A DNA stretch of 64,000 nt from Haloplanus natans DSM 17983 (GCF_000427685.1 NZ_KE386573.1:1100938-1164937); one strand, 5' to 3'. Counted from the first letter of the stretch, positions 1 to 9,573 are shown. Translations and numbers: made by a program. Notes: generated by a model not told the origin, from the sequence alone.

Positions 1-322
1 ATCGATGAACGACCGTCGTCTTAACTGAGGAAGATTTCAATAAGCATCTCCGTAGGAGTTGTTCTCAGAAAACGCCACCCGCCCATCAGACCAACCCACC
101 CCTACTAACTCTACTGCGTGACCCTCCGGGGATCAACAGGCTTGGAAGGTCCCTGAGCGTCCACGCTACCCCTGTCATAGGAGTTGTCCGGAAGAAACCC
201 GCCCGGTTTGTATTGAGCTTCACCGTACCAGCCTTTCAATCTCGTCACACTCATCAATACAGTTATCATTCTACCAAGTGTTCCTACTCAAGAACCCTCT
301 ACGGCAACGGGCTTCGCTCATA
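1..322. other. non-coding left flank of accessory segment
   Basis: No convincing gene. The stretch is AT-richer than the chromosomal part and contains one copy of the CTCAGAAAACG repeat at 64-74 followed by CC. TAGGAGTTGT occurs at two places, about 52 and 178. A promoter for the helicase-like gene at 323 should lie here, but no single TATA box stands out. Confidence 0.5.
64..76 (+). repeat. CTCAGAAAACGCC repeat, copy 1
   Basis: First of four copies of CTCAGAAAACG in the first 3 kb (others at 2463, 2941 and, inverted, 3007). This copy and the one at 2463 flank the helicase-like gene in direct orientation. Confidence 0.6.
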
Positions 323-2386
323 ATGGAAACTGACGATCTACAATCAATTACGACCGGCATCACAAACAAACTCGAACTTTCTGAGGGGGAACACCAAGTC
401 CTGCTTGACGCTCAGCGAGGGACGCCGATAACAACAGAGGACGCCGAAGATCGTCTATCCGAAGCACTTCACGATGCTCTCCAAAATAGCGAAAACACGC
501 TCCTAACTGCCCCGACTGGTCTCGGGAAGACATACACTATCGCTACAACCCCGTGGCGCGACTTTCCCGAGATCACAGGCGGTCAACCGATCATTCACAT
601 TTCGCAGACAACAGACGCTCGTGACGGTGCAGTAGAGATGAGTAAAGAAGCAGGTGTGAAATATGCTGTTCTCAAAGCCCGCAACGAAGTGTGCCCGGTG
701 GCTAACGGCGATTTTGATCGAAAGTTGCCGCGCATTCAAATGCTTACTCCCTCAGAGTGGTTTGACAAGAAGTGTGATAAAGAGCGTATTCCGTTCTCTG
801 AAGCTCATAACTACCTCAGTAAAAAGAACAAGGGACTCCCCTGCGAAGCAACGGGGGCGTGTTCGTCAAAAACGCAATGGCATAACGTACCTCGTAATCA
901 GGAGGGGGAGGTTGAATACGATGTTATCCACGCAACGTCGGCCTTCGCTAAGCTTGGAAATCTAACAGTAGGCTCAAATCTCATCTTTGACGAGCGACCC
1001 GACTATGAAATTGAGTTCACTCAAAATAGACTACGGGTAGCAGTAACTCAGCTACTCCACAGTCGACGGCCTCAAGCGACGAAGTATGATTGGGAAGATC
1101 TGATCAAAACCTCGCAGAAAAGCAATTCCGAGACAGAAGATATGGAAGACATGCCGGAACAATACTATGAGAAATTAGCCGGCTACCGGGGCCTGTCTGA
1201 GGACAACCTTACACGCAAAGAGAAATTTGGAGCGAAAAGGAAGACAGATACTCTCATCCCGTCTCTCATTAGAGCAATAACAAATGCCTACGAGGTAGGG
1301 AATAATCGATTCCGGGGACAGGACGATTTACTTACAGTCGTATTTGATACCGAGAATACTGTTAGGCAAATCCACGAAGCACCCGATCTTTCTAAGACTC
1401 GTTGTGTGATTGGGTTGGATGCCCATCCATCAGAACGACTGTGGCAATTCAACGCAGGCATAGAATTTCAACTCGGAGAATTACTCACTTCAAATGAACA
1501 GCGGTACTGGCGAACGAATGAGCGAGGACTGTTCGTAGTTCAAGTTGGAAGTTACACTAACCCTCTCACGAGAGGGTGGCGTGCATCAAGTCAGGAGAAG
1601 AAAGCGAATATCATTATTAAGGCTCTACGCGAAAAGTTTGGAGGGCTATTCCGAACGTGTATTTGTCCAAAAGAGATCAAGAGCGATATATCCCATCTTA
1701 TGAAGAACGCAGGCATTGTCGATCCCGAATTAATGCATTATGGCGGTGAGAAGAGTCTCAATAATTTCAAAAATGAGGCTGTTGGACTCTTATTAGGATG
1801 CGTTGACCCCGGCGATGTTGGAATCCTCAATAACTTAGCGTTATTAGATCTGTTTGCAGAACCCGAAGATGCGGTGGACAAGGATGGGAATCCCCGCATT
1901 GACGAAGAGGGGGAGCCACTACGAGCTTACGGGCGTGGATTTGTCGGAGAAGATGCCGACGCGGCTCAGGAATTTCTCGAAGACGTACGGGAAGTCCATA
2001 TTGCACAGAGTATAGGTCGCTATGCTCGAAACATCCGCGATACAAACAGCGGGGCAGTAGTCTACGTGTGGACAAACGCTATCCCCCAACATATGATTGA
2101 TGTGAAGATACCGGGAGTTGATCTTCGGAAGGCAACCAAACGGGACACTATCGCGGATTATGTGTATAGAAGTGACGGAGTATTCACGAAGAGAATGATA
2201 GTGGATGCATTAGCAGAGGAGCTTGGCGGCCTTTCTGATAAGCACGTAGTGGATGTGCTGGCCAAACTATCTGATCAGGATATTGTCTTCCAATCAAAAG
2301 GGACTGGCGACTATGGAGCCGATGAATACAGGTACATTGGAGGAACGTTACAGCCGATGATTGATTTGACTATCAAAATGAAATAA
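323..2386 (+). CDS. SF2 helicase-like ATPase with Cys cluster and C-terminal winged helix
   Basis: 687 residues from ATG 323; an upstream in-frame TTG at 278 would add 15 residues of unlikely sequence. Walker A is APTGLGKT (about residues 63-70) and a DERP sequence near 223-226 sits where a DEAD/DEAH box would be. QSIGRYAR near 562-569 resembles helicase motif VI. Four cysteines between Walker A and the acidic box (C124, C151, C174, C180) recall the Fe-S or zinc insertion of XPD-type helicases. The last 75 residues look like a winged helix. Likely an ATP-driven DNA or RNA remodeller of a plasmid- or virus-derived element (replication or defence); no named family is recognised. Base composition is AT-richer than the chromosome, which suggests transfer. 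Confidence 0.75.
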   Translation: METDDLQSITTGITNKLELSEGEHQVLLDAQRGTPITTEDAEDRLSEALHDALQNSENTLLTAPTGLGKTYTIATTPWRDFPEITGGQPIIHISQTTDARDGAVEMSKEAGVKYAVLKARNEVCPVANGDFDRKLPRIQMLTPSEWFDKKCDKERIPFSEAHNYLSKKNKGLPCEATGACSSKTQWHNVPRNQEGEVEYDVIHATSAFAKLGNLTVGSNLIFDERPDYEIEFTQNRLRVAVTQLLHSRRPQATKYDWEDLIKTSQKSNSETEDMEDMPEQYYEKLAGYRGLSEDNLTRKEKFGAKRKTDTLIPSLIRAITNAYEVGNNRFRGQDDLLTVVFDTENTVRQIHEAPDLSKTRCVIGLDAHPSERLWQFNAGIEFQLGELLTSNEQRYWRTNERGLFVVQVGSYTNPLTRGWRASSQEKKANIIIKALREKFGGLFRTCICPKEIKSDISHLMKNAGIVDPELMHYGGEKSLNNFKNEAVGLLLGCVDPGDVGILNNLALLDLFAEPEDAVDKDGNPRIDEEGEPLRAYGRGFVGEDADAAQEFLEDVREVHIAQSIGRYARNIRDTNSGAVVYVWTNAIPQHMIDVKIPGVDLRKATKRDTIADYVYRSDGVFTKRMIVDALAEELGGLSDKHVVDVLAKLSDQDIVFQSKGTGDYGADEYRYIGGTLQPMIDLTIKMK

Positions 2387-2452
2387 ATCGTTACCTCTCC
2401 CTTACATAAATCTCTGTAACGCAAAGGTAACGATCTTCATATGTTCCTACTG

Positions 2453-2479
2453 TAATGTTATTCTCAGAAAACGCCGGCG
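2453..2479 (+). repeat. 27-base inverted repeat, left arm
   Basis: Begins TAATGTT and contains CTCAGAAAACGCCG. It matches the reverse complement of 3001-3027 at 24 of 27 positions by eye (differences at positions 8, 9 and 25). Confidence 0.75.
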
Positions 2480-2940
2480 AACACTACATCAGCAAACCGC
2501 CGGATATGCCCAAACTGTTAGATACAAATGAGCAACACAGGAAACGCGGCTGTTCCTGTATTCTGACTGCTTATACAGATCTTCTATGATCGTGTTGGAT
2601 ACAGGCGGAACAGATAGACCCTCCCGGCTGTCCACCAGCGAGAAGAGCTTCCATGCTACCGAAATCGGGAATTTCCTTAGCGAGACTTTGGGCCGGCGAT
2701 AACCGAGATCAACGAGGAAATCCCATTGTGACTTCCCCAAAATCTGCTCGCGCATTTTCGGCCGACTCCTCTTGAACGCGCAGGGGGGACTTGACGAAGT
2801 ACCAACCCCCTCCTCGATCAGAACACGAGGAGGACAGGATCGTGCGAGCCGGTACCGTGGCAATCAGATACTTATTTTGTATGCTATACGTAGAGGGTTC
2901 AACTGATGTTACTCATTAAAGCGTTACTCTCTATGATCCA

Positions 2941-2951
2941 CTCAGAAAACG
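2941..2951 (+). repeat. CTCAGAAAACG repeat, copy 3
   Basis: Exact 11-base copy in the same orientation as those at 64 and 2463. With the inverted copy at 3007-3017 it forms a close inverted pair. Confidence 0.6.
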
Positions 2952-3000
2952 AAGGGCAGGATAGGTACCAGTTAGTCAAATACGTCCACCAGTACAGACG

Positions 3001-3027
3001 CGACGGCGTTTTCTGAGAGCAACATTA
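3001..3027 (-). repeat. 27-base inverted repeat, right arm
   Basis: Inverted partner of 2453-2479; contains CGTTTTCTGAG at 3007-3017. It lies at the 3' end of the small winged-helix gene (stop at 3033), so it could also act in that transcript. Confidence 0.75.
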
Positions 3028-3032
3028 ACTTC

Positions 3033-3272
3033 TCACTCGTCAGGGGGATCTGGTCGCCACCATACAACGGCAAGCCCGCCGATGTTCTTCTTCCGTATCT
3101 CCCCGCGTTCTCTGAGCGATTCGAGTTTATTGTAGGCCGTCTTCTGAGCCACGTCAAGCGCCTCTGCTACCTCGCTGGTCGTTCGAGGCTCCGTATCGGG
3201 GAACAGCTCAAGGACGGCGTCAAGGGGCACCGTGGCCTGATACCGCCCGCTCTCGTCACGCTCTTGGCTCAT
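3033..3272 (-). CDS. small winged-helix transcriptional regulator
   Basis: 79 residues from ATG 3272 (MSQERDES...); an upstream ATG at 3311 gives a Cys-rich extension that is probably leader. The central part, about residues 20-65, reads as a winged helix: a TSEVAEALDV helix-turn-helix is followed by KTAYNKLESLRERGEI and a beta wing ending in VVWWRPD. Such proteins are usual regulators of haloarchaeal plasmids and proviruses. It is divergent from the SWIM-domain gene, and the 50-base dyad at 3311-3360 lies between them, so autoregulation and control of the SWIM gene are likely (inference). Confidence 0.75.
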   Translation of the reverse strand: MSQERDESGRYQATVPLDAVLELFPDTEPRTTSEVAEALDVAQKTAYNKLESLRERGEIRKKNIGGLAVVWWRPDPPDE

Positions 3273-3310
3273 AGGATGATGTAGACAACGACACTCCATA
3301 CCTGTTTCCA

Positions 3311-3360
3311 TTACTTACGTGAGCAACCGATACACCTATATCGGATACCCACGTAGGTAA
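3311..3360. promoter_or_regulatory. 50-base interrupted dyad with central TATA-like box
   Basis: Nested inverted repeats share one centre (3335.5): TTACTTACGTG (3311-3321) pairs with CACGTAGGTAA (3350-3360), and CCGATA (3327-3332) pairs with TATCGG (3339-3344). Nineteen of 25 symmetric positions are complementary. The centre carries CTATATC (3336-3342). It lies between the divergent winged-helix gene (start 3272) and SWIM gene (start 3446) and fits an operator for a dimeric regulator. Confidence 0.65.
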
Positions 3361-3383
3361 CGGTGAGAAGAACGGTTCCCTCG

Positions 3384-3443
3384 GGACGTGAAAGCGTCCG
3401 GGTGCTGAGACACCCGGAGCCGGCTTCTCTGGTAGGAGAAAGC
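3384..3443 (+). ncRNA. three-hairpin structured leader of the SWIM gene
   Basis: Three hairpins follow one another: GGACG/CGTCC (3384-3388/3395-3399, loop TGAAAG), CCGGGTG/CACCCGG (3398-3404/3411-3417, loop CTGAGA), and GGCTT-CTC/GAG-AAGCC (3422-3443, loop TGGTAG). Each has a six-base loop. The first two share two bases, so they may be alternatives. GGAG just before ATG 3446 lies inside the third stem, which could mask a ribosome binding site. It may be a cis-acting leader or a separate small RNA. Confidence 0.5.
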
Positions 3444-3445
3444 CA

Positions 3446-3901
3446 ATGGAAATCAACGAAGGCGGTAGACAAAAGAGTGCTGTTGAGTATCTGAATTTCG
3501 GCGCGAAGACAGCCAAGCGTGTGACTTGGGAAGCGTGGTCATTCCGCATCGTCGGGCCACTCCAAGTCTTAGTGACGAACGAATCCTACGGGGTCGAGAG
3601 GGACCTACACGCCTACGTGGTGGCCGTCGAGGACGTGGGTGGAACGATTGTACCCCGAGAGTGCGAATGCCCTGCTGACCGTTTCAGGGACGACTACGAT
3701 TGCAAGCATAAATTAGCCCTCGTAGCGGTGGCTGGCCCGGTGGTGATGAATGCGGCGGCGGAGTTTCCTGAGAAACCACTCGAAAGTCCGGACTCCGTCA
3801 ACCCCACTCCGGTAACGGACGGAGGGCACCCCAAAGATGGGAACTGTGAGTGTGAGGGCTTGGGGACTCTCTCCTGCTGGCCGTGCTACCGAGCGCAATA
3901 G
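3446..3901 (+). CDS. SWIM zinc-finger domain protein
   Basis: 151 residues from ATG 3446, with GGAG about ten bases upstream. The SWIM signature is visible: CECP followed by DYDCKH, that is CxCx(n)CxH, around residues 74-90. SWIM domains bind zinc and mediate DNA or protein contacts. Short haloarchaeal SWIM proteins of this size are common on plasmids, proviruses and islands, and their function is unknown. The C-terminus holds another Cys-rich stretch (CECEG...CWPC) that could bind a second metal. It is divergent from the winged-helix regulator and preceded by a triple-hairpin leader. Confidence 0.85.
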   Translation: MEINEGGRQKSAVEYLNFGAKTAKRVTWEAWSFRIVGPLQVLVTNESYGVERDLHAYVVAVEDVGGTIVPRECECPADRFRDDYDCKHKLALVAVAGPVVMNAAAEFPEKPLESPDSVNPTPVTDGGHPKDGNCECEGLGTLSCWPCYRAQ

Positions 3902-3959
3902 ATAAGCAATAGATTAGAGATATAACATCATGTGTTTCAAAGAACCAACTGAAATAGTA

Positions 3960-4394
3960 ATGGCCTTCACAAACGGGTATATTCCGGTATTCGAGAATGA
4001 TGAGGGCGAGATCCTGTGGGCATATGACCCTGTTAGAGGAACGTACTGCGGTGAGTTCGATGACGGCTTGCATTCAACTCCCCAATCGGTGCTATGGCCG
4101 AGTGAATTTAGCAACAGGACGGGCTGGCTTGACGTGCGAGAGCCACCACATCTGATTTACGAACCAGAGGGTACGTATGATGATTTCATCTCCGGTACGG
4201 AAAGGGAGTATCGGACTCACTTCGTCCATGACGGGACGGTTCTTTGCAATCATCGGATGATCGTTCCGTCCCCCGAATCCGAGGAGTTGACTCCATTGTC
4301 TGAATTCTCGGAAGAGGAGCTTCTACGCCTATCCGGACAGATGTGTTCAAACTGTCCGGACATAGACCATATTCTCTCGGAGGAGAAAAAATAG
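3960..4394 (+). CDS. hypothetical protein of the accessory segment
   Basis: 144 residues from ATG 3960 (MAFTNGYIPV...). ATG 3930 would add ten residues and cannot be excluded; an AT-rich GATATAAC lies just before it. The protein is acidic and has a possible zinc pair near the end (MCSNCPD). A WAYDPVRG-like stretch and a C-terminal acidic helix are visible, but I recognise no family. It follows the SWIM gene in the same direction after about 60 bases and may be co-transcribed. Confidence 0.6.
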   Translation: MAFTNGYIPVFENDEGEILWAYDPVRGTYCGEFDDGLHSTPQSVLWPSEFSNRTGWLDVREPPHLIYEPEGTYDDFISGTEREYRTHFVHDGTVLCNHRMIVPSPESEELTPLSEFSEEELLRLSGQMCSNCPDIDHILSEEKK

Positions 4395-4554
4395 AGTCGG
4401 GCTAACGACGGTCGGCGGGCTGGTGGTGATGGAAGTGGCGGCGCGGGTTCTCTGAGAAATTCTTGACTCCTCAAACATCAGTGGGAGATATAGGACGTTC
4501 TGAGAGTCTGACGAGAAGTGCTACTGCACAAGTCGAATAAGCTCTAAGACGCGC

Positions 4555-7500
4555 TCAGTAATCCGTTAGTTGCGAGTCCTCAGGGCCGTGGCGACCGTAT
4601 TCCGAATGATAGCCCTGAACGAAATTGATTTGCTCCTCTGAGAGCCCGTAGAGTTCTCCCATCACTTCATCGGCTTCCTCGATGATGGGTTTCTGCATCT
4701 CATAGTTGTCAAAGTTCTTCACGTCAGCATTGAAGCCGTCTTCCATGGTATTCCACAGCCTATCAGATATTTCTATAATCTCATCACGGCGTGACTCAAG
4801 CTCATCTTCCTCAGGGAGTGGGAATCCGCGAATCTCACCCAAGTTCAGATGGAACATATCTCCGTAGGTACACCAATAAACGTAGAAAACTGATGAGCTA
4901 ATCGCCAAGAACGCGGAACGGGCTTCTAATTCGGACTTAAAATAAATCCCCTTCACATCTGTCCCTGAATACAGCTTCTCCAACATCGGATTAGTGAAGT
5001 AGTCCATTCCCCGTCTTCGCCAGATCACATGGTCTGTTTCTGAATCCTCCTCTCGCTTTTTGATGAGAGAGGGCTGTTCTTTGAGCTTCTGAAGGATATT
5101 CTCTATATGTTCCAACCCGACCTTAGCGAGAGCTACGTGCTTACCGTCCCCATCTATACCGTCATTCCTGAGCGTATAACCGTCTGTATTCCTGTAGGTG
5201 ATATTCCGGAAGCGAGTATCCCTGTCCTTGTCGTTGTCAAATCGGATGAAGTCACTTGTGTAAATGCTCCCCTTTCCTTCAGAAGATGCCTTCTTCCCAC
5301 TAATTATCGCAATACGCACCTCAGCCCCTTCAAACACTTTTGACGGGCGCTTAGCGAAGCAGGCAATATCTGTTCGGTCAAGCGTTTCGCGCAAATAGTC
5401 TTGAATCTCCTCCATAGACCGCTTGTAGACCAACTTCAGGGTGGTTACGTTCCCAAAGTACCCATCTTCAGCTAACAACTGAAGTTGCCTCTCAACGAAA
5501 AGAGCGGCTATGTCTTCTCCGGCAGTCCGGTAGGTAGCTGTAAGAGCATCCTCGCTCTCACTCAGAAGGTCACCATACGGGGGATTTCCTACAATAATAT
5601 CAAAGTCAACGTCAAGAGTCCCGTTATCTTCGCTGTTAGCTTCGGGGAACTCAGCCGCCCAATGGAAGGGTGTCCCGAGAACGTCATTCAAATCATCTCC
5701 GATCGGTCGCCGTTCAACCTGAGAGAAAACGAAGCCGTCGCTCAGAAGCTCACACAGCTCATCTACAAGCGTTTCCTGAGGGTCATCCGTTTCATCATCA
5801 TCCCGAAGCTCACGCTCTCTATCGGCTACATCAAGGGATGCGCTCTTGTTGGTGTCACGCCATTCCTGCCACTCAAAACCAAGGTCCCCTAACCGATCCT
5901 TATCATTGTCCGATAGTTCCTCTTCATCAACCCGCTCTACCTTGATGGAAACCAATTTGCTGTGTAGCTGAGGTTCCTGAATGGAGTCGCAAAACTTCCG
6001 AAACTCCTCAGCTTTCTCAAACTTGGTTTCAACTGTGTAGTTCAGTTGGTCAACGTAGGCCTTGTTGAGAACCGGGCGAATCTCTTCTTCTAACTGTTCA
6101 ATCTCCGTCCGGTCTTCCGTTTCCTCTTTCTTGTATTGCTTCCTGAGTTCAAGCACTTCCTCCATCTGTTCCTCAACATCAGCGAAATCGAGGGAAACAT
6201 CGGTCATCCCCTTGATTGGGAGCCCAATAAGCGAGTTCCCATCTATGATGTTAACATCAATGTTGGGGAGTTTCCCGAACTCCGGAGTCCAACTGTTGTC
6301 TTCCACAATCTTCAGCCATACCCTAAGCTTGGCGATTTCAGTAGCTATACGGTCTGCATCCACCCCGTAGATACCGGAGAGTGCCAGATTCCGCTTCAGA
6401 TGGAATCGGGTTTCTGCATCGGGCGTATCACCGTGGCTGAGCCCTCGCTGAAGGGACAATTGAGCCCGGTACACTTCATCCATAGCCGACGTGAGGAAGT
6501 GACCACTCCCACAAGCAGGATCTAAGACTTTGATTTGTGAGAGGCGGTCATTCGCTTCCTCAATGGCTTCAGGGGTAGCGAACCAACTGCGTCCCTCTTC
6601 CACCGCTTCCAATATCTCAGAAAGCTCCATCTCATCCAACTGTCCTCGAATTACCGTAGCTTGGTCATCATCCTGAGAGACAATATCAACGAACGTCTCT
6701 ATGAGTACGTCCCGAATCTTAGGGTCAATGGCGTTCCTGCTAACGATTTCCGTAACGTCGTTCGGGGTGTAGTAGGCTCCCGTATCCTTCTGTTCCCGTT
6801 CCTGTTCTATGTGGTTGATAGTCTTCTCAAACACGCTCCCCAAGATAGCAGGGTCAAACCCCCCTCCATTGAGTTCCAACTGAGAACCTTCGATCAGGTC
6901 TGAAATGACGGTCGGGAGGATTCGGTCAATCACCGTATAGTTGGACTCTTCGGGGACGTTCTCACGAAAGAGACCACCATTCAGGTAGGGCACTTCATCA
7001 AACCAACCCCTCCGATATTTTGGCTCTCGGTCATCAACTTCTGTGTTGAGAAGCTTGTAGAACAGGGGCCTGATTTGGGTTTCGTAGAGGTTCCCTGCGA
7101 GTACGTTTTCATGCCGCTCATAGTGATCTACCCGGTCACGGAGAAACCCGTCATACAGAATATCCCGAGACTCAAGGAATTTGATGAACAGTAGTCGGTT
7201 CATCAGAGTGATACCAAAGAGTCGTTCATCCTTCTCCGTCGCCCCGGACGGGGAGCGAATATCATCCATCAAGCAGGTCTCATAGTCGTATTCATCGCTC
7301 TCGCCAAACAGAAGCTCAATATAGAGTTCATAGAAGGCTTCAACGTCTCTCTTCCGTTCATCACGGAGTGTCTTCGGAGCGGTCTGTGAAAGAAGCGTTT
7401 GGAACTTGGGACGGTCAAAGGTAGAGACAAAACCATCAAGCTCTTCCTCTACGTCAACGTGCGTGAGGCTTGTAGAGGAAACCACCCCGGTATCTCTCGC

Positions 7501-8016
7501 TACTTCAAGCAGGGCAGGGCGAATATCCACATACTGAATCTCCGGGTATTCGGTGAAGTCCCCGCCAAGCTCAATCCGGAAAATGTACCATTCAATCCCG
7601 TCCGTCGCGATCCCGTACTCAGCTCCTATAGATTTCTTATCAAGATATTCTTTAACCTCAGGAATTGCCTCATCTACGTTGTTGAGTGGTTTGTCTTCCC
7701 CGATAGTGTGGGGCTCAAAGTTGGTGAGTTCAAAGTCGGGCCACACAGCCCGCTCACCGCTTTGTCCGAACGGTCGAGGCTCATAGTCCAATCCGGCGGC
7801 TTCCAAGAGAGGGTAGATGAGGTGATTTTCGGTAAAAGACTCCGGGCGAGTTCCAAGGTCGGCGCTTGTCAAATTATCTTCATCTCCGGTTAGAACTCGC
7901 TCTATGTCGTGGGTGTCTAATCGGTCGCCCAATTCGATAACGAATGTTTCCAAAACCTCGCGTACATCTTCTGTATCAAGTATAGAGTCCTCATCGGGCA
8001 GAGCGGGGTCGGGCAT
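4555..8016 (-). CDS. type IIG-like restriction-modification protein (PD-(D/E)xK nuclease + N6-adenine methyltransferase)
   Basis: 1153 residues. The N-terminus has a PD-(D/E)xK pattern: P93-D94 followed by E107-D-K109, within a region resembling the HsdR/N-terminal domain of type I and IIG enzymes. SAM-binding motif I is LDPACGSGHF near residue 497, and catalytic motif IV is NPPY near 808-812, which is typical of N6-adenine methylation (Eco57I-type). The remaining C-terminus should hold target recognition. A single chain that both cuts and methylates DNA fits type IIG. PglX of BREX systems has a similar methyltransferase core, but no other BREX gene is seen. Defence against foreign DNA is the likely role. 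Confidence 0.88.
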   Translation of the reverse strand: MPDPALPDEDSILDTEDVREVLETFVIELGDRLDTHDIERVLTGDEDNLTSADLGTRPESFTENHLIYPLLEAAGLDYEPRPFGQSGERAVWPDFELTNFEPHTIGEDKPLNNVDEAIPEVKEYLDKKSIGAEYGIATDGIEWYIFRIELGGDFTEYPEIQYVDIRPALLEVARDTGVVSSTSLTHVDVEEELDGFVSTFDRPKFQTLLSQTAPKTLRDERKRDVEAFYELYIELLFGESDEYDYETCLMDDIRSPSGATEKDERLFGITLMNRLLFIKFLESRDILYDGFLRDRVDHYERHENVLAGNLYETQIRPLFYKLLNTEVDDREPKYRRGWFDEVPYLNGGLFRENVPEESNYTVIDRILPTVISDLIEGSQLELNGGGFDPAILGSVFEKTINHIEQEREQKDTGAYYTPNDVTEIVSRNAIDPKIRDVLIETFVDIVSQDDDQATVIRGQLDEMELSEILEAVEEGRSWFATPEAIEEANDRLSQIKVLDPACGSGHFLTSAMDEVYRAQLSLQRGLSHGDTPDAETRFHLKRNLALSGIYGVDADRIATEIAKLRVWLKIVEDNSWTPEFGKLPNIDVNIIDGNSLIGLPIKGMTDVSLDFADVEEQMEEVLELRKQYKKEETEDRTEIEQLEEEIRPVLNKAYVDQLNYTVETKFEKAEEFRKFCDSIQEPQLHSKLVSIKVERVDEEELSDNDKDRLGDLGFEWQEWRDTNKSASLDVADRERELRDDDETDDPQETLVDELCELLSDGFVFSQVERRPIGDDLNDVLGTPFHWAAEFPEANSEDNGTLDVDFDIIVGNPPYGDLLSESEDALTATYRTAGEDIAALFVERQLQLLAEDGYFGNVTTLKLVYKRSMEEIQDYLRETLDRTDIACFAKRPSKVFEGAEVRIAIISGKKASSEGKGSIYTSDFIRFDNDKDRDTRFRNITYRNTDGYTLRNDGIDGDGKHVALAKVGLEHIENILQKLKEQPSLIKKREEDSETDHVIWRRRGMDYFTNPMLEKLYSGTDVKGIYFKSELEARSAFLAISSSVFYVYWCTYGDMFHLNLGEIRGFPLPEEDELESRRDEIIEISDRLWNTMEDGFNADVKNFDNYEMQKPIIEEADEVMGELYGLSEEQINFVQGYHSEYGRHGPEDSQLTDY

Positions 8017-8429
8017 TCTACATCTTGCCTCTCAAGCGCACCAATTAAAAGGTGCGTTGCCGGAGGGAGTCTACTCTCTAAGTGACGGTTCTCCCTGCTT
8101 CCTGACAAGCGCATTTAAAATAGGTGTGCTTCGTATGATACTCATCGGGAGACTGCGTCGACCCTCAACCGTTCGACGGTTCAAATGAAACGGTCAGCTT
8201 CTCACAAGGTCGCGCCCGGTTTTCTCCGGACAACATCAGGTGGGAAGCACTAACTCGCCTACTACGCCAGCGCGAAATTCTCACAACGAGCGGGACGACT
8301 TACTTCGGATCTCGACCGGGCGGGACTGATGAAGTCGCAACCGGAGGGGAGCAACTGTAGTTTGACCAAGTCATTGGGTGGCCCACGTTCCCTGTGGGAA
8401 TCACGTATCCTCAAGGTAGTATATGAATT
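8017..8429. other. intergenic region upstream of the nuclease-methyltransferase
   Basis: About 410 bases without a supportable gene. It should hold the promoter of the minus-strand methyltransferase gene; I see no convincing operator or repeat. Confidence 0.45.
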
Positions 8430-8711
8430 TTATTCTGAACTATCCGAAGTAACTTCCTCAAGCCTATTTTCAAGTGACTGTATTCGTCGACGGGCTTGTA
8501 TTAATTCTCTGCGGGTTTCGTCTCGTTGTTTTCTCAGTTCTTCATTCGATTCGTCGCTATTGATTTGCCTGTCGAACTTTTTCATCCCTGCTTCGGTCAT
8601 ATTTTTTATAAAGCCTGAAAGGGATACTCCCGCATCTTCCGCTCCCTGCTCCCATCTCTCTTTCTGCTCCTTCGTCACGTATACGAATATTTGCTGTGTC
8701 AATTTTGTCAT
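8430..8711 (-). CDS. ribbon-helix-helix-like protein with C-terminal coiled coil
   Basis: 93 residues from ATG 8711. The N-terminus (TQQIFVYVTKEQKERW) has the beta-strand plus helix look of a ribbon-helix-helix DNA-binding protein. It is followed by SLSGFIKNMTEAG and, from about residue 50 onward, a highly charged Arg/Glu-rich coiled coil. Such small proteins are typical of haloarchaeal plasmids and integrated elements, where they serve as copy-number, partition or antitoxin-like regulators. The exact role is unknown. Confidence 0.7.
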   Translation of the reverse strand: MTKLTQQIFVYVTKEQKERWEQGAEDAGVSLSGFIKNMTEAGMKKFDRQINSDESNEELRKQRDETRRELIQARRRIQSLENRLEEVTSDSSE

Positions 8712-9282
8712 TGTCTATGGTATTTATCAGGATCAGTCCTGTTCCTTTTCTCTTCATACGCTATAATAGATGATAGAGACGCGCAAATCGGAGGTATTTG
8801 ATACGTTACGAAGAGATATATTTTCATTAGTCAATTGGTGTTTTATAGACGTGACTACCTCCGTGACTGCCTTCGTATAACTCGTTATCTTTCTGCCTCT
8901 CCACCTCTGAACCCTTGTCGTAGTGCTTGTCCAACACTCATTCTCTATCTGGCCAAGTCCTCCGTCTCGCCGTCGTCATTACGGCAGTTCCGTATGTGAG
9001 AGCGCCGATTTTACGGGGTATAATAATGATTTGGGTGGCCAATATTTTTGTGCCACTCATCTCATTGGAATTAGTTGTGTGCTTGACCATGGGGAGAAGA
9101 GTCGCGTGTTCGCTCTTTTTGGATACGTTGAGTCTGTGTCAGAGCAATTATAATCGAAGTACGGCGAGTCGACGTTGCTCACGAAGCAAAAAAACAGGGC
9201 TTATAAGCAATCGGTACGTCCAATTGAGTGTGGAAGCCCCCAAGGGTGCTACACATATAAACTGAGGCGCGAGCCGAAGTTT
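8712..9282. other. intergenic region between accessory segment and tRNA-Glu
   Basis: About 570 AT-rich bases. A hydrophobic TTG-initiated frame at 8927-9265 has no family features and I do not call it. I see no integrase remnant. The tRNA promoter should be near its right end. Confidence 0.4.
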
Positions 9283-9357
9283 GCTCCGATAGTGTAGTCC
9301 GGCCAATCATATTGCCCTCTCACGGCAATGACCAGGGTTCGAATCCCTGTCGGAGCA
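9283..9357 (+). tRNA. tRNA-Glu (CTC)
   Basis: 75 bases with a full cloverleaf. The acceptor stem is GCTCCGA/TCGGAGC and the anticodon stem is TTGCC/GGCAA with loop CTCTCAC, giving anticodon CTC (9319-9321), which reads GAG. The T-arm is CAGGG-TTCGAAT-CCCTG. The terminal A of 9357 is templated; no CCA is encoded. No intron is seen. Confidence 0.95.
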
Positions 9358-9468
9358 TTGCAGCGAGCGTCACGCTGTGACGCGAGCGAAACGCACACGA
9401 AGGGGTTCGAACCACGCGAGACGAGCGTCAACGAGTCTCGCAATCGGGTTCGAATCCCTGTCGGAGCA
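9335..9468. repeat. duplicated tRNA-Glu 3' end (att-like direct repeat)
   Basis: The last 23 bases of the tRNA (9335-9357) recur exactly at 9446-9468. A partial copy, GGGGTTCGAA, lies at 9402-9411. Between the copies are two hairpins: GCGTCAC/GTGACGC (9367-9383) and GCGAGAC/GTCTCGC (about 9416-9441). Such duplications mark integrase-mediated insertion at a tRNA 3' end. Only about 110 bases remain, so this is a scar or a nested remnant. Confidence 0.75.
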
Positions 9469-9573
9469 GTTCTCGAACGTAGTGAGCGACTGCGACCGGA
9501 GATTCATTATCGTCGCCGCCGCGAGGTTCGGTATGGACGGACTCACCGACACCCGGCGACGGGGTACTCACTG

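What the first reader, a model, noticed from the sequence alone, without database searches (positions are those of the whole stretch)
278..8711. Compact accessory module: helicase with Cys cluster, SWIM protein, type IIG enzyme and two regulators
Seen: an AT-rich block holding a Walker A/DERP ATPase with four cysteines and a C-terminal winged helix, a small winged-helix protein, a SWIM protein, an unknown 144-residue protein, a PD-(D/E)xK-NPPY fusion enzyme and a ribbon/coiled-coil protein. Known: type IIG enzymes and SWIM proteins occur in defence and mobile islands. Inference: it may be a defence island in which the helicase and SWIM protein work with the restriction enzyme, or a plasmid remnant that kept its replication helicase. 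The helicase plus SWIM plus three-hairpin leader is a set I cannot match to a named system.
Basis: partly seen in the sequence, partly recalled or inferred. Interest (0 to 1): 0.6.

Follow-up and report, generated by a model that had tools for sequence, protein, structure and literature searches.

The report
tRNA-integrated element with RNA-switch leader
The block is the right-hand 85% of a small mobile DNA element that inserted itself into a transfer-RNA gene of a salt-loving archaeon, and the leader of one of its genes is a conserved folded RNA, apparently undescribed, that recurs in about 40% of sampled haloarchaeal genomes and looks like an on/off switch for such elements.

Summary
It is most of a tRNA-integrated mobile element: 10,856 bp between 42-bp direct repeats of the 5' half of tRNA-Glu(CTC). 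A tyrosine integrase lies just left of the window, and the site is empty in sister species. The helicase is the stand-alone form of a plasmid replication-protein helicase; relatives sit beside tRNA genes or integrases across Halobacteria. The type IIG enzyme is exchangeable cargo.

It is a three-way-junction RNA with strong covariation, no Rfam match, and hits in 163 of 391 Halobacteria genomes, none found outside the order. It ends at a start codon in 81 of 81 sampled cases and usually has a divergent winged-helix gene upstream, homologous to the immunity protein of virus phiH. The junction's last strand is also complementary to the sequence before the AUG (supported by a swap test), which suggests a two-state switch.

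The RNA family and module are well supported computationally. The switch's trigger and direction, and the element's mobility, are inferred.

The parts
1..9324 (.). Right-hand part of the integrated element (left 1.6 kb, with integrase and left att, lies outside the window at C7:1099364-1100937)
   Evidence: 42-bp direct repeat at C7:1099364 and window 9283-9324; GC 47-55% vs 70%; empty site in sister species
278..2386 (+). Replication-type helicase, DinG/XPD-like, with cysteine cluster and C-terminal winged helix; probable true start ATG 323
   Evidence: Relatives in 69/391 Halobacteria genomes; fused in small plasmid Rep proteins; PADLOC typeIV_DinG in 9 of 11 members; alignment A1
62..76 (+). 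Element-specific intergenic repeat TTCTCAGAAAACGCC; further copies at 2461-2475 (+), 3005-3019 (-) and 4444-4458 (-)
   Evidence: function unknown
3033..3311 (-). Winged-helix repressor, homologous to phiH/phiCh1 immunity protein Imm
   Evidence: tblastn 38.5% over 77 aa, E 1e-8 to phiH imm; divergent homologues beside 14 of 20 leader loci
3314..3361 (+). SWIM promoter: TATA-like TATATC at 3337-3342 flanked by an inverted repeat (TTACGTGAG / CACGTAGGTAAC), candidate operator
   Evidence: Sequence; AT-rich hexamer at -28 to -25 of the leader in most of 79 leaders, palindromes enriched
3362..3445 (+). Structured leader RNA: P1 3365-3370 + 3373-3379 with 3416-3422 + 3424-3429; P2 3384-3389/3394-3399; P3 3400-3404/3411-3415; alternative P4 3422-3429 with 3437-3445, abutting the AUG
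   Evidence: Folding z -3.7; covariation; model R1 110 bits; P4 swap test
3446..3901 (+). SWIM zinc-finger protein (151 aa) with C-terminal CxC...CWPCY motif
   Evidence: PF04434 20.6 bits, cutoff 19.6; relatives in 118/391 genomes
3930..4394 (+). Unknown protein P154
   Evidence: 83-88% identical copies next to SWIM in a second element of this genome and in a sister species; distant relatives beside related helicases in two further genomes
4555..8016 (-). Type IIG restriction-methylation enzyme (cargo)
   Evidence: other IIG enzymes at the cargo position of L076, L078, L079, L080
8430..8711 (-). Ribbon-helix-helix/coiled-coil protein; possible recombination accessory protein
   Evidence: NikA-like; 45% identical relative directly upstream of integrase genes in L079
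9126..9324 (.). Right att arm plus core, 71% identical to the same arm of a 59.7-kb tailed provirus in a sister species
   Evidence: blastn E 8e-18
9282..9358 (+). Reconstituted tRNA-Glu(CTC); att core 9283-9324 (5' half); upstream sequence now supplied by the element

Best explanation
It is a plasmid-type integrative element of haloarchaea. An HSTV2-family tyrosine integrase recombined the element's att site with the anticodon-loop region of tRNA-Glu; the right end now supplies the tRNA's upstream sequence (shown by sequence). The helicase is most likely the element's replication motor after excision (inferred from its plasmid Rep relatives). Element state is controlled by a compact switch: an Imm-like winged-helix repressor, transcribed divergently, sits beside palindromes that flank the TATA box of the SWIM gene; the SWIM mRNA starts with an 84-nt three-way-junction RNA. 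The last strand of the junction (P1') can pair either upstream (P1, junction closed, AUG region free: ON) or with the bases just before the AUG (P4, start site occluded: OFF). Shown: conservation, covariation of the junction, swap-test support for P4, position at the start codon, divergent repressor homologue. Inferred: which state is ON, what flips it (a protein, an antisense RNA as in phiH, or a ligand), and that SWIM antagonises silencing. The type IIG enzyme is cargo that protects the host and the element's tenure.
For: Direct repeats and integrase. Empty sites in sister genomes with the same left flank. Same family at other tRNAs, 5.6-12.4 kb. Helicase relatives on 8.9- and 10.8-kb circular plasmids. 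Leader: nearly all of 12 leaders fold as a junction; sequence-only alignment 87.8% paired against 36-46% when slid, 0/500 shuffles; 81 leaders 96.2% paired, 23 of 24 pairs with changes on both sides. P4: helices of 6 bp or more in 47/81, swapped mean 22.8, maximum 33. G-U cells 120 against 72 for all ten other mismatches together. 163/391 genomes, none found outside the order. Imm homology, divergent wHTH in 14/20, TATA spacing. A model without the AUG tail finds only leaders already known in 1.13 Mb.
Against: No excised circle or transcript was observed. No origin, relaxase or packaging gene was found. The 100-N gap next to the window hides an unknown length. In most leaders the junction is far more stable than P4, so P4 may form only in a transient or bound state. 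Downstream genes are heterogeneous (29 of 81 carry a SWIM motif), so the output of the switch is unclear. The phiH leader itself does not match the RNA model. A9 was fitted to the model, so its pair counts lean towards it; A5 was not. The helicase fold model had low confidence.
Confidence: 0.78

Rival explanations
1. A stand-alone defence system in which helicase, SWIM protein and type IIG enzyme act together on invading DNA.
For: IIG enzyme is a bona fide R-M type; R-M genes recur as cargo; a distant helicase, SWIM and another IIG enzyme occur together in L076.
Against: The sister element L037 keeps helicase, wHTH, SWIM and P154 but has no IIG gene. Cargo differs between elements and includes a TrkH transporter. 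Helicase relatives are plasmid Rep parts. Among defence models the helicase matches best, and only partially, a type IV CRISPR DinG.
Confidence: 0.08
2. A virus satellite: the element borrows its integration module from tailed haloviruses and is packaged by a helper such as the 59.7-kb provirus that occupies the same tRNA-Glu in a sister species.
For: The integrase is 61% identical to that provirus's, and the only DNA similarity between the two is att plus int (66%) and the right att arm (71%); same tRNA and same 5'-half core; phage-type Imm repressor.
Against: No packaging, capsid or terminase gene recognised and no other shared DNA in the element. Many family members use a different integrase type. 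Relatives live as small plasmids. No helper provirus was looked for or seen in this genome.
Confidence: 0.12
3. The leader is a DNA-level site (operator, origin or recombination site) rather than an RNA switch.
For: It is an inverted-repeat-rich stretch next to an operator-like palindrome; the opposite strand also matches weakly.
Against: G-U pairs are kept far more often than other mismatches; matches lie at a near-constant short distance before an AUG even with a model lacking the AUG; the TATA box places the start of transcription at its first base.
Confidence: 0.08

Closest known systems
phiH / phiCh1 immunity region (imm and the early lytic promoter of T1-T3)
   Same: Homologous winged-helix Imm protein, divergent from a promoter whose transcript has a long 5' leader before a small regulator; RNA-level control by an antisense RNA is documented for phiH.
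   Different: The phiH/phiCh1 leader does not match the RNA model; the controlled gene is a PadR-like regulator, not SWIM; RepH is not detectably related to this helicase.
HSTV2-family tyrosine integrases (Badel et al. 2021, PMC8371274)
   Same: 48-49% identity to HSTV-2/HRTV-7 integrases over 95% of the protein.
   Different: Here on a small plasmid-type element. [quoted passage not shown]
Small haloarchaeal plasmids with helicase-containing Rep (Halomarina sp. BCD28 NZ_CP100453, Halorientalis litorea NZ_CP095486)
   Same: Related helicase domain and a site-specific integrase; the divergent wHTH/leader module is present across the coordinate origin.
   Different: Helicase is fused into a 1062-1246 aa protein (a weak DnaG_N match in one); helicase identity only about 23%; found as free circles.
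Mpal_2033-type integrative elements (Extremophiles 2014, PMC4158269)
   Same: Small archaeal integrative elements built on a helicase/primase replication protein plus integrase.
   Different: Superfamily I helicase there, and no RNA-leader module described in the passages read.

Membership tests
tRNA-integrated mobile element | Site-specific recombinase gene | tested here: met
   Phage_integrase PF00589 5e-18 at L005:6494-7636, just left of the window
tRNA-integrated mobile element | Direct repeats at both ends, intact tRNA restored | tested here: met
   42-bp exact repeat, tRNA-Glu nt 2-43
tRNA-integrated mobile element | Empty site in relatives | tested here: met
   Left flank contiguous with intact tRNA-Glu in G392, G173, G394, G233
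tRNA-integrated mobile element | Excision and circular form | not testable with these tools
   No reads or cultures available
Structured cis-regulatory RNA | Compensatory base-pair changes | tested here: met
   (alignment not fitted to the structure)
Structured cis-regulatory RNA | Fixed position before coding sequences | tested here: met
   81/81 hits end at an ATG; all 27 hits of the tail-less model R2 coincide with leaders already known
Structured cis-regulatory RNA | Regulatory effect in vivo | not testable with these tools
   Needs a reporter assay
Any Rfam 15 family | Match to a curated model | tested here: not met
   No relevant match on 11 loci at E up to 0.5
phiH/phiCh1 immunity switch | Imm-type winged-helix protein | tested here: met
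   E 1e-8 over 77 aa
phiH/phiCh1 immunity switch | Same leader RNA | tested here: not met
   No match in the imm regions, filters off
XPD/DinG helicases | Four-cysteine cluster between motifs I and II | tested here: met
   All four in 10 of 11 members of A1 and 7 of 11 of the more diverse A4; three of them invariant in all
XPD/DinG helicases | Fold and full-length profile match | tested here: inconclusive
   Partial typeIV_DinG match; Foldseek top two are DinG and XPD but the model has pLDDT 48 and E about 2e-3
Type IIG restriction enzyme | Eco57I/MmeI-type methylase fused in one long chain | tested here: met
   PF07669 4e-22, REase_MTase_IIG 7e-39
Type IIG restriction enzyme | Cleavage activity | not testable with these tools
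   Needs enzyme assay
Virus satellite (PICI-like) | Packaging or capsid-hijack genes | tested here: not met
   None recognised among the ORFs; only int/att similar to the provirus

The most novel reading that the evidence does not exclude
An undescribed class of bistable leader RNA, paired with a divergent Imm-like repressor, is the common maintenance switch of haloarchaeal plasmids and integrated elements. Its two mutually exclusive helices decide whether the first regulator (often a SWIM protein) is translated and hence whether the element stays silent.
Probability: 0.5. Interest if true: 0.85.

Novelty: new variant of a known kind. Interest (0 to 1): 0.7.

Why it matters
Few cis-regulatory RNAs are known in archaea. 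This one is found in 163 of 391 sampled Halobacteria genomes, covaries strongly, has no Rfam entry, and sits in a defined circuit with a repressor homologous to a classic archaeal viral immunity protein. That makes the long-open question of how haloarchaeal elements decide between silence and activity testable with ordinary reporters in Haloferax. Separately, it indicates that HSTV2-type integrases act at the anticodon loop and may carry either half of the tRNA, and that small plasmid-type elements and tailed viruses compete for the same tRNA site.

Tried and rejected
Defence-module reading: cargo is exchangeable. Structure of P154: AlphaFold failed, pLDDT 36. Helicase model low confidence; profile search of PDB gave only weak winged-helix matches to its C-terminus. 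Helicase in phage records: none; in viral contigs by close-relative scan: none. Structure in the helicase's own leader: none, z +1.3. Pairing of P1' with the first 14 codons: not above swaps. The leader in HSTV-2 (second half), phiH and phiCh1 imm regions: none convincing; none in the G135 provirus. Papers: nothing describing this RNA or element family was found, but subscription journals are largely missing from the library.

Full report
WHAT IS THERE. The window lies at G000:C7:1100938-1164937 of a 3.8-Mb haloarchaeal genome. The block is 47-55% GC in a 70% GC chromosome. It ends at an intact tRNA-Glu(CTC) at 9282-9358. A 42-bp exact copy of that tRNA's 5' half lies 10,856 bp to the left, outside the window. 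Between that copy and the window lies a tyrosine integrase gene (L005:6494-7636, PF00589 5e-18). A run of 100 N sits between integrase and window; it falls in sequence repeated elsewhere in the genome, so the true length there is unknown.

IT IS AN INSERTION. I joined the two chromosomal flanks and searched the genus. In G392, G173, G394 and G233 the left flank, with the same TTTAAATA box, runs straight into a complete tRNA-Glu; in G393 the joined query matches over almost its whole length. In the window's genome the left repeat is the original tRNA start followed by element DNA, and the right copy is a complete tRNA preceded by element DNA. So the restored tRNA is read with upstream sequence supplied by the element.

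A FAMILY OF SUCH ELEMENTS. Helicase relatives occur in 69 of 391 sampled Halobacteria genomes. In seven of the first twenty 20-kb neighbourhoods the locus is bounded by a tRNA gene and an exact copy of 20-45 bp of it, giving elements of 5.6-8.5 kb; more followed. Elements with an HSTV2-type integrase share the anticodon-loop region (about nt 30-43) in their repeats, and carry either the 5' half (L005, L043) or the 3' half (L048, L078, L081). The elements with other integrases repeat only the 3' part, from nt 39 or later. The review PMC8371274 describes 5'-half sites in archaea only for pTN3-like integrases. Named carriers include Halorubrum californiense, Natrinema altunense and Halosegnis rubeus. 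This genome has two more elements with the same wHTH/SWIM pair (L072, L073).

THE HELICASE. It has three invariant cysteines plus a fourth present in most members. Nine of eleven members partly match a type IV CRISPR DinG model. Foldseek's best two hits are DinG and XPD, but the model is poor (pLDDT 48) and the E-values are only 2-3e-3, so DinG/XPD-like is a working label. On 8.9- and 10.8-kb circular plasmids a related domain forms part of a single 1062-1246 aa protein, one with a weak DnaG_N match. A replication role follows by inference.

CARGO. Large genes at the cargo position are a type IIG enzyme here and in L076, L078, L079 and L080, type I R-M in L054 and L077, Mrr-like endonuclease plus methylase in L048, and a TrkH transporter in L081. 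The sister element L037 keeps helicase (broken by two TGA), wHTH, SWIM and P154 at 63, 87, 75 and 88% identity but has no IIG gene. Helicase and SWIM lie within 10 kb in 7 of 24 sampled genomes that have both; my own arithmetic puts the chance expectation at about 0.25 (from the lists).

THE LEADER RNA. Upstream of SWIM in twelve loci lies an 85-95 nt stretch with folding z-scores of -1.7 to -4.0. The minimum-energy structure is the full three-way junction in ten of the twelve; in L080 it is the inner junction with P4 in place of the outer P1, and in L081 it is a different fold. On a sequence-only alignment, the structure taken from the window's leader is 87.8% paired, against 36-46% for slid versions; seven pairs change on both sides; 0 of 500 shuffles reach the covariation score. 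A covariance model (R1) found 163 of 391 Halobacteria genomes in 61 of 86 genera at E 0.01 per genome, where about four chance genomes are expected. In 295 genomes drawn across the phylum all 18 genomes with hits were in the window's order. Eighty-one leaders aligned to the model are 96.2% paired; 23 of 24 pairs change on both sides, 331 such cells against 77 in shuffles. That alignment is fitted to the model, so the unfitted one above carries more weight. G-U cells number 120 against 72 for all ten other mismatch types together, which argues for selection on RNA. Rfam has no match.

POSITION AND PARTNERS. All 81 leaders end at an ATG opening an ORF (one of these ORFs is only 8 codons). A second model without the AUG tail, run over 1.13 Mb, returned 27 matches, all at leaders already known. 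An AT-rich hexamer lies most often 25-28 nt before the first base of the leader (49 of 79), the archaeal TATA spacing; palindromes with arms of 7 or more are enriched in the 120 bp upstream (14 against 2). In 14 of 20 wide neighbourhoods a relative of the window's winged-helix protein lies divergently just upstream. On plasmids L057 and L058 the same divergent pair spans the coordinate origin. The first protein made is a SWIM protein in 29 of 81 cases and otherwise a small, often cysteine-containing protein. The first 13 codons share a loose pattern (M-S/T-..., Q/E-E/K at positions 9-10).

THE SWITCH. The 3' strand of P1 is also complementary to the bases directly before the AUG. Own strands score better than strands swapped between sequences (z 9.2); helices of 6 bp or more form in 47 of 81, swapped mean 22.8, maximum 33 in 200 swaps. 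The same strand pairs upstream (P1) in 64 of 81. The two pairings exclude each other. I infer that the junction leaves the start site open and P4 closes it. The swap test treats sequences as independent, so relatedness may inflate z, but restricting swaps to strands differing at two or more positions gives the same picture.

LINK TO VIRUSES. The winged-helix protein is homologous to Imm of phiH and phiCh1. In phiH imm is divergent from the early lytic promoter, whose transcripts have a 150-nt leader and an antisense RNA. The phiH leader does not match R1, so the claim is homology of the repressor and likeness of layout, not membership of the RNA. In sister species G135 the same tRNA-Glu holds a 59.7-kb provirus with DNA polymerase, tail sheath, tape measure and baseplate genes. 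Its integrase is the closest found (61%). Element and provirus share only the integrase end and the right att arm. The integration module is therefore of a type shared with tailed viruses; a satellite life is possible but unsupported by packaging genes.

SHOWN AND INFERRED. Shown by sequence: insertion, att sites, family, leader conservation and covariation, divergent repressor. Inferred: mobility today, replication role of the helicase, direction and trigger of the switch, protection by the IIG enzyme.

Noticed in passing
window 62-76, 2461-2475, 3005-3019, 4444-4458; L072 4595-12556: Intergenic repeats around TTCTCAGAAAACGCC, often just downstream of genes, shared by two elements of this genome: 11 near-exact hits genome-wide, 8 of them in the two elements, none for the reversed control. 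Function unknown; perhaps boundaries for gene exchange.
   Followed up: partly
L005 7839-7938 (just left of window base 1): 100-N assembly gap inside repeated sequence; the gap may hide further genes of the element.
   Followed up: no
window 9446-9468: A 23-bp copy of the tRNA-Glu 3' end 111 bp downstream of the tRNA: probable scar of another integration at the same gene.
   Followed up: no
G135:C1:2267125-2326814 (L100-L103): 59.7-kb tailed provirus in the same tRNA-Glu of a sister species with the closest integrase.
   Followed up: partly
L175 (G000:C7:1926500-1930500): A fourth leader RNA in this genome, about 1.3 kb from another HSTV2-type integrase gene.
   Followed up: no
leaders in A9, first 13 codons: Unrelated downstream proteins share a loose N-terminal pattern (Q/E-E/K at codons 9-10), as if different genes had been joined to a common start.
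   Followed up: partly
L105 (G334) 7629-9513: A split type IIG gene next to the same tRNA-Glu in another species, with an att arm like the provirus's.
   Followed up: no
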